Assembly: GCA_945905735.1 (NCBI GenBank)
Contig: CAMDQC010000041.1
Location: 1 to 35,136, forward strand
Length of the DNA stretch: 35,136 bases
Direction: 5' to 3'
Origin: Prosthecobacter debontii
GTDB lineage: Bacteria; Verrucomicrobiota; Verrucomicrobiia; Chthoniobacterales; Chthoniobacteraceae
This document shows, piece by piece, positions 15,083-35,136 of this stretch. Below the pieces are notes generated by a model. It worked only from the letters and a program-made list of their open reading frames with translations. It did not search any database and was not told the origin of the DNA. The position numbers and the translations under genes are program-made. Numbering within the stretch: the first letter of the stretch is position 1; every line of letters begins with the position of its first letter.

Positions 15083-16626
15083 TCGGCCCGACGTTTGCAC
15101 TCTTCATCCGCTCCCTTCGCGAGGACACGCGCGCGAAGTTCACGCCTATCGGGCGAGCGTCGCTTGTGCTGGTTGTGCTGTTCTTTATCGCTATCCAGCA
15201 GCGCAGTTTCGCCCGCCAGCCTGCGCCGGGATTGCAGGTGTTTTTCACCGTGATGATGGTGAATCTCTTCGGGCTCGTGCTCGGCGGCATCACGGCGTTT
15301 TGCTCCGCTATCACGGAGGAAAAAGAGGACGACACGCTCGGCCTGCTGCGCATGACGAACCTCAGCCCGCTGGCGATCCTGTTTGGCAAAGGGATCAGCC
15401 GACTCGTCAGCGGCGTGCTGCTCATCGTCTCGCAGCTCCCGTTCACCATGCTGTGCGTGACGCTCGGCGGCGTGTCGGCGGCGACGATTTGGAAAGGATA
15501 CGAGGTATTGCTCTGCACGCTCTTTTTCCTCTGCTGCCTCGGGCTGCTAACGTCCGTCATCGCAAAGCGCACGGGCGTCGCGGTGGCGATCACGGTTTTT
15601 GTGGGCGCGGTGCTCTATGTCGGTGTGCCGATAATCTACATGACCAACTTTGCGCGGAACCCTTGGAGCGGTGCCCCGACGCAGAGTCCCGTGCAAGAGG
15701 CACTGGGCTGGGTGATGGCGAACAATCCGCTCTACCAACTCACCATGCTGACCCAAGGCGGCGGGCGGGGATTCCTCCCTACCGCAGGCAGTCCGTGGCT
15801 TTTCCACGGCGTCGCGGGAGTCGTGTGCTTCCTCCTCGCGTGGGCGCTGTTTGGGCGCTTCTGCTCTGGCACCGCCGAGACTGCACCCAAGAAGAAGTCC
15901 GCGAAGCCTGGCAGCAAGAGCCTGCGCATCCCGCGCCCCGGCTCGCGCCCGCTCGTATGGAAAGATTTTTGGTTCCTCATCGGAGGTCGGCGCGGGCTCA
16001 TCTCGCGCTTCATCGGCTACGGCGTGCTCACCTTTGGGATCATCGCGTGGGCCATCGCCGAGAACAGCTACATGGAGTCGAAAGTCGTCGGGGAAATGAT
16101 GGTCGTATTCGCGGGATTCGGGCTCGGCGTGGAGCTGGTGATCGGCTCTGCCAGCATCTTCGGGCTGGAGAGGAAAGGGCTCACGCTCTCCTCGCTGCTC
16201 ACGCTGCCGGTCCCGCTCGGGCGCATCGTCCGCCACAAAATCCTCGGCGTGCTCGGCTCGTTCATCCCTGGGCTGTGCTTCGTCGGGCTGGGCATGGCGA
16301 TGACGCCGGAGAGTGTCGTGAGTTTCTTCGACGACGTGACGCGCAGGGACGCCGACACTGCCGTATTCATTTACATGCTTCTCCACCTCATCGCCGTCCC
16401 ACTGCTCACCTGTTGGCTCTCGCTGAAAATGCGACGCGGCGCTGTGGCGGCAGCGATTGCTATCGGGGTGATCTGGAATGTCCTTCTCGGAGTGATGGCG
16501 GATATTGCGGAGCGCGACGCCTTCGTCGGGCTGATCATCTTTGCCAGCGTGGCGCTCGTCGCTATCAGCATCATCTTTTTTGCTGCCATCGCGAGAGGCA
16601 TCCCCCGCGCAGGAGCCGTCGAGTAG
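15079..16626 (+). CDS. ABC-2 type permease, first of two paralogues
   Basis: This 515-residue protein has about twelve hydrophobic segments. Near the N-terminus it carries SAITEEKEDDTLGLLRMTNLSPLAILFGK, the ABC-2 (NosY/CcmB-like) coupling-helix region that contacts the ATPase. A soluble loop with TAPKKKSAKPGSKSL lies near mid-protein, and a second bundle of membrane segments follows. The next gene is the same length and shares the same motif, so they are duplicated subunits likely forming a heterodimeric channel. It starts inside the ATPase gene (ATGA) and ends three bases before the next ATG. Confidence 0.88.
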   Translation: MIGPTFALFIRSLREDTRAKFTPIGRASLVLVVLFFIAIQQRSFARQPAPGLQVFFTVMMVNLFGLVLGGITAFCSAITEEKEDDTLGLLRMTNLSPLAILFGKGISRLVSGVLLIVSQLPFTMLCVTLGGVSAATIWKGYEVLLCTLFFLCCLGLLTSVIAKRTGVAVAITVFVGAVLYVGVPIIYMTNFARNPWSGAPTQSPVQEALGWVMANNPLYQLTMLTQGGGRGFLPTAGSPWLFHGVAGVVCFLLAWALFGRFCSGTAETAPKKKSAKPGSKSLRIPRPGSRPLVWKDFWFLIGGRRGLISRFIGYGVLTFGIIAWAIAENSYMESKVVGEMMVVFAGFGLGVELVIGSASIFGLERKGLTLSSLLTLPVPLGRIVRHKILGVLGSFIPGLCFVGLGMAMTPESVVSFFDDVTRRDADTAVFIYMLLHLIAVPLLTCWLSLKMRRGAVAAAIAIGVIWNVLLGVMADIAERDAFVGLIIFASVALVAISIIFFAAIARGIPRAGAVE

Positions 16627-32678: not shown

Positions 32679-33632
32679 ATGAACTTCCGTGATCTCGAAT
32701 ACCTCGTAGCCGTGGCCGAGCTGGGCCACTTCGGTCAGGCCGCCGCGCGCTGCAACGTCAGCCAGAGCGCATTGAGCCTCCAATTGCAAAAGCTCGAGGC
32801 CGAACTTGGCGTGCAACTCATCGAACGCACCAGCCGCCGCGTGGTCGTATCGCCATCGGGCCGCCCGCTCGTGGAGCGCGCGCGCAGTATTCTGCAAGCG
32901 CGCCAGGAGTTGCTCGACGACGCCGCGGTGGAAATCGGACGGATGCCCGCAACGATCACCCTGGGCCTCATACCGACCATCGCGCCCTACCAGCTCGGGC
33001 CGATTCTGAAGTCCATGAGACAAACATATCCCGGCACCACGCTGCGCATCATCGAAGACATCACTCAAAATCTCGTGCAGGCCACAGCGCGCGGCGAGCT
33101 CGATGCGGCAATCATCGCCACGGCAACGAACGACTCGCTCATCGCCGAGACCGAGCTCGCGCACGATGAACTTCTGCTCACCGTGGACCGCAGGCATCCG
33201 CTCGCAAAGCAGGACCAGGTCGTGCCGAAGCAGCTTGAAAAAGAGACCATGCTCCTGCTCAAAGACGGCCATTGCCTCAGCGACCAGGCCATCGGCTTTT
33301 GCAACGCGAACAGCGCCGCCGTGGCCCCGGTCTCCATCGCTGCGAGCATTGATACCCTCAAAGCCATGGTCTGCGCCGGCATGGGCGTCACGCTCATCCC
33401 GCGCATGGCCGTGGATGCGTCTCCGCCGGACAAATGTCTCGTCTTCCTCCCGCTCAAGCCCGCCCCTTCGCGGACCATCCGTGTCATCACCCGCAAGACA
33501 TCACGACTCGGCCCCTTGCTCGCCGCAGCGCTGAAAAGCGCGATCGAAAGCGGCACCGCATGCTGTGTTCACAAGCCCGTGAAGGCGCGCAGGAAAGCCG
33601 GGGAAAAGCAGCCGGTGCAGATAAAACGCTGA
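32679..33632 (+). CDS. oxyR: Peroxide-sensing LysR-type regulator OxyR
   Basis: This 317-residue LysR-family regulator has an N-terminal helix-turn-helix (NFRDLEYLVAVAELGHFGQAAARCNVSQSALSLQLQKLE) and a periplasmic-binding-type sensor domain. The redox pair Cys199 and Cys208 in KDGHCLSDQAIGFC matches the E. coli OxyR positions and spacing exactly, so the protein should sense H2O2 by disulphide formation. The C-terminus adds a basic tail (KPVKARRKAGEKQ). ATG 32679 starts the conserved MNFRDLEYL; the frame stays open further upstream only through antisense katG sequence. It is divergent from katG, its expected target. Confidence 0.96.
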   Translation: MNFRDLEYLVAVAELGHFGQAAARCNVSQSALSLQLQKLEAELGVQLIERTSRRVVVSPSGRPLVERARSILQARQELLDDAAVEIGRMPATITLGLIPTIAPYQLGPILKSMRQTYPGTTLRIIEDITQNLVQATARGELDAAIIATATNDSLIAETELAHDELLLTVDRRHPLAKQDQVVPKQLEKETMLLLKDGHCLSDQAIGFCNANSAAVAPVSIAASIDTLKAMVCAGMGVTLIPRMAVDASPPDKCLVFLPLKPAPSRTIRVITRKTSRLGPLLAAALKSAIESGTACCVHKPVKARRKAGEKQPVQIKR

Positions 33633-33833
33633 ACCGGAAAACCCCTTCACCGCCGCACGGGTGGCCAACTCCGGCCCCACGGTTTCCCCGGCACTCTCCC
33701 TGCCATTACGGTCCGGACGGGGTCCGAACTCGGGGTGTGCCGGGTGCGAAACTTGGCAAGCTGTCAATTTTTTGGGGAAAATGGATGACTTCACTGTTGG
33801 TTAGATTCTTGGCAGCGCACGGTCTGGCCTCGA

Positions 33834-34583
33834 CTATGCAGTTGGTGGGGTGGGCGGTTGGTCTTCTTCGGTGGGGCCGTGGCCAGCGTCGATGACTTTG
33901 CGCACGCGCTTCCAGTCGGCGATGAAGGCGGCGACGGCTTCGGGCGAACGTCCCGGGATGCTCGGGGAGTTTGGTGCGGTGGGCTCCAGTTGGGCGACTA
34001 GGTCGTCCAAGTCCGTCAGTTGCTCCATCAAGTCGGCCACTCCGGTGACTAGTTCGCGGCGCTTTGTCGCGCTGCCGCCAATGCTCGTGCGGGGTTTGCG
34101 CTGGAGGTCGTCAAACAGCGCGATGGCAGCGGTGAGGGCGGTGATTTTTGCCATGGTGACTCCACGGCCCGCCGCGCCGCTCTCGTCGCGCGCTTGCATG
34201 GCGAGGTCGCGGATTTCGGTGCATTTTGTGATGAGTGCCTGGTCGCGCAGGCGGACGAGGGCGCGTTTTGGAAATGTCACTTTTGCGCGGTCACTGGTGT
34301 TGCCGGTTTTTTTGAAGTGGTTGCGCAGGGCGGCGGCGAGTTGGAGGGTGAGTTTCTCCAAGGCGTCCTCGGCGTCGGCTTTTGCGTCGGCATCTCCGGA
34401 ATTATCGGTATCCGCAGCGATGGCGAGGTCGCGCAGCCCGATATACGATTGCTTCATGCGGGCAAAATCGGCGGCAAAGTCCAAAGGCGGCTGCCCTTGC
34501 CAGATGATGATGCTCTCTGGTTTTTCAACCAGCGTGATACAGGCTTTCGCCATGTCTAGTTTGTTGGATGTGTTGTCGTTCAT
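33834..34583 (-). CDS. Helical protein of unknown function
   Basis: This 249-residue, largely alpha-helical, acidic protein has no recognised family, signal peptide or membrane span. Notable parts are WQGQPPLDFAADFARMKQSYIGLRDLAIAADTDNSG near residue 30, the conserved-looking RALVRLRDQALITKCTEIRDLAMQARDESGAAG around 110, and a Pro-rich C-terminus (EEDQPPTPPTA). ATG 34583 is the only good start and follows the heptad-repeat leader at 34584-34620 directly. To its right is a 21-bp repeat array. Function not known. Confidence 0.7.
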   Translation of the reverse strand: MNDNTSNKLDMAKACITLVEKPESIIIWQGQPPLDFAADFARMKQSYIGLRDLAIAADTDNSGDADAKADAEDALEKLTLQLAAALRNHFKKTGNTSDRAKVTFPKRALVRLRDQALITKCTEIRDLAMQARDESGAAGRGVTMAKITALTAAIALFDDLQRKPRTSIGGSATKRRELVTGVADLMEQLTDLDDLVAQLEPTAPNSPSIPGRSPEAVAAFIADWKRVRKVIDAGHGPTEEDQPPTPPTA

Positions 34584-34620
34584 TTGTTAGTTGAGAGTTG
34601 ATGGTTGAGAGTTGAGAGAG
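34584..34620 (-). repeat. Heptad repeat leader before the 249-residue gene
   Basis: Read on the minus strand, units CTCAACT / CATCAACT repeat about five times with a 7-base period and end in CTCAACTAACAA directly against the ATG at 34583. The arrangement and the ending equal the leader before mcsB (4252-4291). No Shine-Dalgarno sequence lies between the repeat and the start. Confidence 0.65.
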
Positions 34621-34712
34621 GGGGATGCGCGATGCCGGATGCGGGCGAAGCCGCGTGAGGCTGTCAGGCCTTTTACGCGGCAAAATTGTCGTAAGTCGTT
34701 GAAAACGCCGCA

Positions 34713-35136
34713 ATTGACAACGGAGGTGAGTCCATTGACAACTCCGATGGGTCGATTGACAGCGCCGATCCGCCCATTGACAAGGCGGAGACTCTCATTG
34801 CCAAGCCTTGCACTGTCATTGACAAGAGCGATTTGCCAATTGCCAGTCGCCTCAACCCTGTTGACAACCCGCTCATGGTCATAGACAGCCAGCGCACGTT
34901 CATTGACAGCGGCGCTCTGGCCATTTTCAGCCAGTCCACCCCCGTTGACAACGGCGATGACTGGATTGCCAAAGTCTTCAACCCCGAACACGGAGCCGAT
35001 AATCTCATTGCCAAGAGCCGCCAACGCGTTGCGACTTTGTGCGCACCGGGTTCGAAAACGGATGGCTGCGTTGCAAAAAAGTTCGCTGCCCTCCCACCGC
35101 CCGCAGGCCCCGTTTGCAAACCCAACCTGCTCATTG
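34713..35136. repeat. Phase-locked array of 21-bp repeats, continuing past the window
   Basis: From 34713 to the window end, 20 complete units of exactly 21 bases follow without a single insertion or deletion. Each begins with a nine-base block close to ATTGACAAC (variants ATTGCCAAG, GTTGACAAC, ATTGACAGC), followed by 12 variable bases. Units start at 34713, 34734, 34755 and onward every 21 bases to 35112, with the next beginning at 35133. Strict phasing suggests a heptapeptide repeat. Three frames stay open through most of the array: rightward (Ile/Val-Asp/Ala-Asn/Ser/Lys plus four), leftward Leu-Ser-Met plus four, and leftward Val-Asn plus five. Rightward the frame opens just after a TAA at 34692 and lacks an early ATG; its first ATG is at 34875. 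Which strand is coding, if any, cannot be decided from this window. Confidence 0.75.

What the first reader, a model, noticed from the sequence alone, without database searches (positions are those of the whole stretch)
34713..35136. Array of 20+ exact-period 21-bp repeats at the window edge
Nine conserved bases (near ATTGACAAC) alternate with 12 variable bases at a fixed 21-base period with no indels over 424 bases. The lack of indels is the strongest sign of heptapeptide coding, yet three frames on two strands remain open and none has an early good start. It could encode a heptad-repeat surface or coiled protein, or be a non-coding repeat with a strict 21-bp (two DNA turns) spacing suited to cooperative protein binding.
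Basis: partly seen in the sequence, partly recalled or inferred. Interest (0 to 1): 0.75.

Follow-up and report, generated by a model that had tools for sequence, protein, structure and literature searches.

The report
Gene paired with 21-base DNA array
The repeats at the window edge belong to a recurring two-part genetic unit: an uncharacterised gene with a long array of DNA repeats in front of it, whose sequence differs from site to site while its 21-base spacing, two turns of the DNA helix, stays fixed.

Summary
The array is real, but it is cut off by the contig end. It lies upstream of an uncharacterised gene, "X" (33834-34583, minus strand, 249 aa), with no consistent match in Pfam, NCBIfam, PHROGs, PADLOC or PDB sequences.

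X relatives occur patchily in the window's phylum and in Bacteroidota, with up to 25 matches per genome. Of 96 testable X genes, 65 have a 21/42-bp-periodic array within 900 bp upstream (65 of 108 if 12 partial hits count as misses). Downstream it is 2 of 85. Array sequences differ between loci; the period does not.

The arrays are not generally coding: 11 of 53 have stops in all six frames, only 3 of 41 spacing departures are multiples of three, and substitutions ignore codon phase. Array sequence co-diverges with X where the proteins are at least 40% identical. X plus array is 93-94% identical in two species but lies in different surroundings.

Best reading: a mobile-looking gene-plus-array unit whose helically phased sites are bound cooperatively, probably by X. 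Binding and function are inferred, not shown. A TIGR-like guide array is the main rival. My paper searches found no description of such a unit.

The parts
33834..34583 (-). Gene X, 249 aa, uncharacterised family
   Evidence: ORF; no family hit for this protein in Pfam or PADLOC at E<=1, no NCBIfam hit, one PHROG at E 0.2; relatives in the same genus, family, order, phylum and in Bacteroidota; 16 synonymous and 21 non-synonymous differing codons against G002, third positions 22 of 49 differences; low-confidence all-helical model
34584..34712 (.). Spacer between X and its array; 34585-34679 is not shared with G002, where other sequence with a 29-nt inverted repeat lies instead
34713..34985 (+). 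Array part 1: 13 units of 21 bp, 11 with intact core RTTGMCA, usually preceded by C; on the X strand the core reads TTGTCAATG
34986..35136 (+). Array part 2: units still in 21-bp phase, cores decayed in all but one of seven; runs off the contig end
   Evidence: continuation seen in L047 and L003
33779..35136 (.). Portion of the X-plus-array cassette present in the window; left edge of homology to G002 at 33779
   Evidence: 93% (33779-34584) and 94% (34680-35136) identity to G002 L047 5245-6678

Best explanation
The array is the cis half of a two-part unit: gene X and, upstream of it, an array of typically 9-20 DNA sites exactly two helical turns (21 bp) apart. SHOWN: X genes and 21-bp arrays go together in two phyla; the sequence is locus-specific while the period is the same; reading frame is not conserved; array sequence co-diverges with X; no other gene was seen to recur widely beside them; the unit lies in different surroundings in two close species. 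INFERRED: the sites lie on one face of the helix; X (or an X complex) recognises the core of its own array and polymerises cooperatively along it; the nucleoprotein array controls transcription of X and/or the behaviour of a mobile element. Works like (not a member of): iteron or centromere arrays with an adjacent cognate binding protein.
For: Upstream, 21 or 42 bp is the top period (of 7-60, self-match >=0.55) in 35 of 57, 13 of 13 and 17 of 26 testable X loci; downstream 2 of 59 and 0 of 26; Fisher p=1.9e-22. Spacings between cores in 68 arrays: 666 of 748 exactly 21, 34 at 42, 7 at 63 (the arrays were chosen for a 21/42 period, so these three numbers are partly by construction); the 41 departures are mostly 20, 22, 41, 43 or 10, 11, 32, with none at 18, 24, 39 or 45. 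Of the 37 array pairs whose X proteins are >=40% identical, same-strand similarity exceeds opposite-strand in 33. In some diverged arrays about 9 of 21 columns, roughly one turn, are conserved and 12 are near random (best 9-column block against rest: L171 0.80/0.48, L172 0.78/0.48, L174 0.84/0.54). Among 534 neighbouring ORFs of at least 90 codons in 74 loci no family joins more than 3 loci.
Against: X is not basic (median pI 7.1, 30 members) and no known DNA-binding domain recurs in it. Most cores are not palindromic (6 of 68 at p<=0.05, the window's among them). The conserved columns form one significant block in only 13 of 68 arrays. 31 of 96 X genes (43 of 108 with the partial hits) have no detected array (41, 46, 53). 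Arrays without X nearby exist in G004 and G007. Between G000 and G002 the core is not clearly more conserved than the rest over the whole length. For mobility the identity argument is mixed: a 2.1-kb stretch left of the window's LysR gene is 73% identical in G002, but the sulfatase beside the G002 cassette is 92% identical to its G000 copy.
Confidence: 0.5

Rival explanations
1. RNA-guide array of TIGR type: the array is transcribed, about 9-nt repeats flank about 12-nt spacers, the 42-bp super-period is a dual-repeat unit, and X is the RNA-binding effector.
For: TIGR arrays have alternating 8-12-nt repeats with 9-nt (up to 12) spacers, most often 5-15 units, beside one effector gene (PMC12045711). 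Here some diverged arrays show about 9 conserved and 12 variable bases, 42-bp similarity is often above 21 (top period 42 in 21 of 57 loci and 8 of 26), and the arrays lie beside one protein predicted helical at low confidence.
Against: The Nop model PF01798 matches nothing in G000, which has seven X hits, while it rings in 4 of 14 control genomes. No Nop match among 30 members in Pfam at E<=0.1. Several arrays are nearly identical throughout, variable part included (lag-21 self-match L215 0.96, L248 0.98, L266 0.98). The paper says TIGR spacer sizes vary across loci; here the period was 21 or 42 in nearly every array seen. No RNA-fold signal. X not found in viral contigs by two queries nor in the phage collection by one.
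Confidence: 0.17
2. Cis-regulatory array bound by a host factor other than X, for example a regulator that controls X.
For: Position upstream of the X start (median array end at -92); arrays without X nearby exist.
Against: One host factor would need to read about 20 arrays of mostly unlike sequence in one genome (G445); no other gene was seen to recur in the unit; array sequence follows X sequence.
Confidence: 0.15
3. Only curvature matters: any sequence repeated every 21 bp adds up its bends, giving a curved or superhelical DNA scaffold.
For: Period constant, sequence free.
Against: Predicted curvature is not significantly higher than in column-shuffled arrays with the same period (KS p 0.18 and 0.22; 9 and 6 of 53 at <=0.05, where about 3 are expected; wedge parameters recalled). 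A core block is conserved in some diverged arrays.
Confidence: 0.07
4. Heptapeptide-coding repeat (a coiled or surface protein).
For: 21 = 7 codons; at least one of six frames is open in 42 of 53 arrays and several in the window.
Against: Substitutions even over codon phases; 11 of 53 arrays closed in all six frames and no constant open frame; departures from 21 mostly break the frame (3 of 41 in frame, p=9e-5).
Confidence: 0.03
5. Neutral minisatellite that happens to sit near X.
For: Some arrays are homogenised, as slippage would make them.
Against: Upstream/downstream contrast 65 of 96 against 2 of 85, and the same period in two phyla where a free search over 7-60 could have found others.
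Confidence: 0.03

Closest known systems
TIGR arrays / Tas proteins (PMC12045711; abstract, section 4 and passages seen)
   Same: Array of short conserved and short variable stretches next to one effector gene; two alternating repeats; sequences locus-specific
   Different: 36-nt guide unit against 21/42 here; spacer sizes vary across loci there; no Nop match here; several arrays here have no spacer diversity; not found in the phage and viral sets by the few queries made
Iteron arrays of plasmid replicons (recalled)
   Same: Direct repeats about two helical turns apart beside the gene of a cognate protein
   Different: No Rep-family match; many copies on long contigs of one genome; median 15 units; no plasmid match in three queries
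Plasmid centromere arrays (parC/parS/tubC type, recalled)
   Same: Phased site arrays near the gene of the binding protein
   Different: No partner gene recurs beside X in more than 3 of 74 loci
BrickBuilt MITE of Porphyromonas gingivalis (PMC4596501; abstract and section list seen)
   Same: Tandem minisatellite in a mobile element of a Bacteroidota species, intergenic, 19 copies
   Different: 23-nt unit of one sequence, small inverted-repeat ends, no associated protein named in the abstract
TAACTGA heptamer repeats (PMC4679880; abstract and section list seen)
   Same: Intergenic direct repeats just upstream of genes; some in Bacteroidetes
   Different: One fixed 7-nt sequence before genes without a common function

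Membership tests
TIGR-Tas | Nop-domain effector gene beside the array | tested here: not met
   By sequence: PF01798 0 matches in G000, controls ring in 4 of 14; no Nop hit for 30 members. By fold it stays open: model pLDDT 56.6, no PDB match at E<=0.001
TIGR-Tas | Conserved repeats of 8-12 nt alternating with variable spacers of 9-12 nt | tested here: inconclusive
   Seen in some diverged arrays, absent in homogenised ones; one significant conserved block in 13 of 68 arrays
TIGR-Tas | Array transcribed and processed to 36-nt guides | not testable with these tools
   Needs RNA sequencing
Iteron replicon | Replication initiator (Rep) gene next to the iterons | tested here: not met
   No Rep initiator model among the Pfam and NCBIfam hits of X members; other neighbours only tested for recurrence
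Iteron replicon | Direct repeats spaced by whole helical turns | tested here: met
   666 of 748 spacings 21 bp
CRISPR-Cas | Repeats of about 23-50 bp with similar-sized unique spacers and cas genes (recalled) | tested here: not met
   Whole unit is 21 bp; no widely recurrent neighbour genes
Protein-coding heptapeptide repeat | One conserved open frame | tested here: not met
Insertion sequence or MITE | Terminal inverted repeats and target-site duplication | tested here: inconclusive
   No inverted repeat joins the two ends of L047 5200-6960; exact edges and an empty site were not resolved

The most novel reading that the evidence does not exclude
A previously undescribed, widely spread mobile genetic unit of Bacteroidota and the window's phylum: a helical protein family whose members each own a private upstream array of about 15 sites, held at exactly 21 bp by the geometry of the double helix while protein and site sequence drift together. 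It would amount to many mutually orthogonal protein/array pairs within one genome.
Probability: 0.5. Interest if true: 0.9.

Novelty: categorically new. Interest (0 to 1): 0.82.

Why it matters
A cis array defined by its period and not by its sequence escapes ordinary repeat and motif searches, which may be why it has gone unnoticed. It gives a function-blind handle (gene X plus lag-21 signal) on an unnamed protein family with up to 25 matches in one genome. If X binds its own array, the many pairs per genome make a natural experiment in protein-DNA (or protein-RNA) recognition and in helical phasing. It also explains some draft-assembly breaks: the window's contig and three contigs of G004 (C40, C67, C116) start or end inside such arrays.

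Tried and rejected
Coding, tested by substitution phase, stops and spacing: rejected as a general reading. Sigma-70 -35 box: the window core holds TTGACA, but arrays of other X genes mostly do not, so it is not general. Curvature, RNA folding, palindromic cores, array polarity and a conserved hairpin at the array end: no general signal. Rfam, searched for 33600-35136 only: nothing near a gathering score; one match at E 0.23 inside gene X. X in plasmids (three queries), phages (one) and viral contigs (two): none. PDB by sequence: best E 0.0004 with A2 (a stretch of a cytochrome fusion, no stretch passing on its own), not among the hits with A4 (best 0.065); read as chance between helical proteins. 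Family scans of 20-30 members gave weak hits in one member each, or in three for one PHROG (best E 0.0002, phrog_9758, one member). The fold model is too poor to use; its Foldseek list has nothing at E<=0.001. Papers: the listings and the passages of PMC6344855 show no such unit; only this open library was searched.

Counts and dropped rows. Repeats of one gene were merged, and 12 partial X hits were left out (L176/L209, L177/L208, L188/L214, L194, L195, L197, L199, L202, L218, L240, L247, L249). None showed 0.55 or more at lag 21 or 42, which print only the best three or four periods; counting them as misses gives 65 of 108. One row (G444:C192) was not fetched. Of the 62 rows, 12 are G445 again (one of them, C32:47519, new and untested), 27 were tested and 23 were not tested. 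In one search two loci (L298, L307) read as N upstream and count as misses. The 22 genomes were chosen because they hold the window's core pattern, so their X number is no estimate of prevalence; the 247 were drawn evenly from that phylum. The tallies include the centre genome itself. L067 was found by the pattern and is in the 53 and 68 arrays but not in the 65 of 96; L212 and L239 are in the 53 but not in the 68. Of 78 control segments, three reached 0.55 at any period: one holds the X array of L049, one in L003 is borderline (0.552, a tie of 42 and 48) and one has period 30.

Full report
WHAT IS THERE. Window 34713-35136 holds twenty whole 21-bp units without an indel. Lag-21 self-match is 0.469 against a surrogate maximum of 0.347 in 2000. 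The core RTTGMCA, usually preceded by C, is intact in 12 of 20 units, 11 of them among the first 13; afterwards it decays while the phase stays. The window is the entire contig G000:C41, so the array is truncated by the assembly. A same-genus genome, G002, holds a 94%-identical copy that goes on, by eye in phase to about unit 22-27, and contig C96 of the window's own genome holds a partial second copy.

THE GENE BESIDE IT. The array begins 130 bp upstream of a minus-strand gene, X (33834-34583, 249 aa). The window's X has no hit in Pfam, NCBIfam or PADLOC and one PHROG at E 0.2. Wider scans of 10-30 relatives gave weak hits in one member each, three for one PHROG. X relatives were found in 11 of 57 relatives, 9 of 40 family genomes, 6 of 387 sampled genomes of the phylum, the own genome included each time; in 6 of 22 genomes reached through loci, among them an uncultured Bacteroidales (G445) with 25 matches; and in 16 of 247 sampled genomes of that one's phylum, itself included.

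THE ASSOCIATION. For 60 X hits, 16 further hits of G445 and 27 hits of a sample drawn evenly from the Bacteroidota I took up to 900 bp on the upstream side and asked which period from 7 to 60 gives the best 105-bp self-match. Period 21 or 42 at >=0.55 is best in 35 of 57, 13 of 13 and 17 of 26 testable loci, together 65 of 96. Twelve partial hits outside the table showed none, which makes 65 of 108. Downstream it is 2 of 59 and 0 of 26; the two exceptions (L212, L239) have their array on the other side. Fisher p is 1.9e-22, treating loci as independent, which some are not. Of 78 control segments one reached 0.55 at period 42 because it holds an X array, and one is a borderline tie of 42 and 48. 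The 68 upstream arrays (L067, found by pattern, among them) have a median of 15 units and end a median of 92 bp before X.

SEQUENCE FREE, PERIOD FIXED. I see no sequence common to all arrays: TTGTCAATG in the window, TCTGGAAAT in G001, TTGGAAATG in G445, GAATGTGTTAAGCCCGCACTC in another G445 locus, and so on. Core-to-core spacings are 21 in 666, 42 in 34 and 63 in 7 of 748 cases; since arrays were picked for that period this is partly by construction. More telling, the free period search hardly found another, and the 41 departures are mostly 20, 22, 41, 43 or 10, 11, 32; only 3 are multiples of three and none is 18, 24, 39 or 45 (p=9e-5 against chance for frame). Single-base indels are common mutations, so this speaks against a reading frame more than it proves phasing. 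21 bp is two turns of B-DNA at 10.5 bp per turn (established knowledge). In some diverged arrays about nine columns are conserved and twelve are near random, but a single significant block is found in only 13 of 68.

NOT CODING. Between the three copies the substitutions fall evenly on the three codon phases (8/7/8, 9/11/6, 12/13/10). Of 53 arrays, 11 have stops in all six frames, and the open frame is not constant. This removes the heptapeptide reading as a general explanation.

CO-DIVERGENCE AND MOBILITY. Among 2278 array pairs, same-strand similarity rises clearly only where the X proteins are at least 40% identical: 33 of those 37 pairs exceed the opposite strand, and below 40% the similarity is nearly flat. 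No gene family joins more than three of 74 loci among 534 neighbouring ORFs of at least 90 codons. X plus array is 93-94% identical between G000 and G002. The surroundings differ: the window's left flank does not lie beside the G002 cassette (a 2.1-kb stretch of it matches G002 at 73% on another contig), and the sulfatase beside the G002 cassette lies on G000:C37, where no cassette match was found. Against a simple reading of recent transfer, that sulfatase is itself 92% identical. Exact ends and an empty site were not resolved, and no terminal inverted repeat was seen.

MECHANISM. The most economical model is that X recognises its own core and polymerises along one face of the array, regulating its own gene and perhaps the element. 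Shown: association, period, non-coding nature, co-divergence. Inferred: binding and function. Against it: X is not basic (median pI 7.1), has no recurring known DNA-binding domain, most cores are not palindromic, about a third of the X genes tested lack a detected array, and arrays without X nearby exist in G004 and G007. Curvature, RNA structure, polarity and end hairpins gave no general signal.

COMPARISON. Closest in look are TIGR arrays: alternating 8-12-nt repeats with 9-12-nt spacers beside a Nop-domain protein (PMC12045711). The defining Nop domain was sought by sequence and not found, several arrays here have no spacer diversity, and the period does not vary between loci; guide processing is untested. 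The fold model that could decide is poor (pLDDT 56.6 from two sequences; no PDB match at E<=0.001). Iteron and centromere arrays (recalled) share phased sites and an adjacent binding protein, but no Rep model hit X and no partner gene recurs. My paper searches listed no description of the unit.

VERDICT. Confidence in the association is very high, in DNA-level phasing good, and in binding by X moderate.

Noticed in passing
L045 (G004:C116) 1-190 and 597 onward: A 21-bp ATTGCCAA array at a contig end sits some 400 bp from a reverse transcriptase gene of the UG19 (DRT) type (PADLOC E 3.9e-132). It may be chance.
   Followed up: partly
L046 6300-6580, L042 6119-6280, L048 6430-6790: 21-bp arrays without an X gene found nearby (solo arrays) in G004 and G007; the one in L046 appears, by eye, to lie between convergent genes.
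   Followed up: partly
L047 6103-6173: A 29-nt near-perfect inverted repeat between X and array in G002, absent from the window copy; similar pieces hit several contigs of G000, so perhaps a REP-like dispersed element.
   Followed up: no
L061, L073, L085, L107 (Planctomycetaceae Ncb351_bin97): Several 21-bp arrays of the form GTTGACAATTNNNNAAAACCA on different contigs, with arrays on both strands in L073 and L107; no X gene in these loci or in that genome by the models used.
   Followed up: partly
L293, L305, L306, L310 (G621, G484): Open frames of 329-405 codons match only the middle of the X model (that of L305 twice), yet have 21/42-bp arrays upstream: the family may be wider than X.
   Followed up: partly
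G445 contigs C45, C46, C65: Three contigs end inside or just at an X gene (partial hits that stop 4-27 bases before the contig end); the reason was not examined.
   Followed up: no
L003 1-660: Partial second copy of the array in the window's own genome, without X, starting abruptly inside a unit.
   Followed up: partly
L003 about 16019-16168: A borderline 42/48-bp self-match (0.55) elsewhere on contig C96, not looked at further.
   Followed up: no
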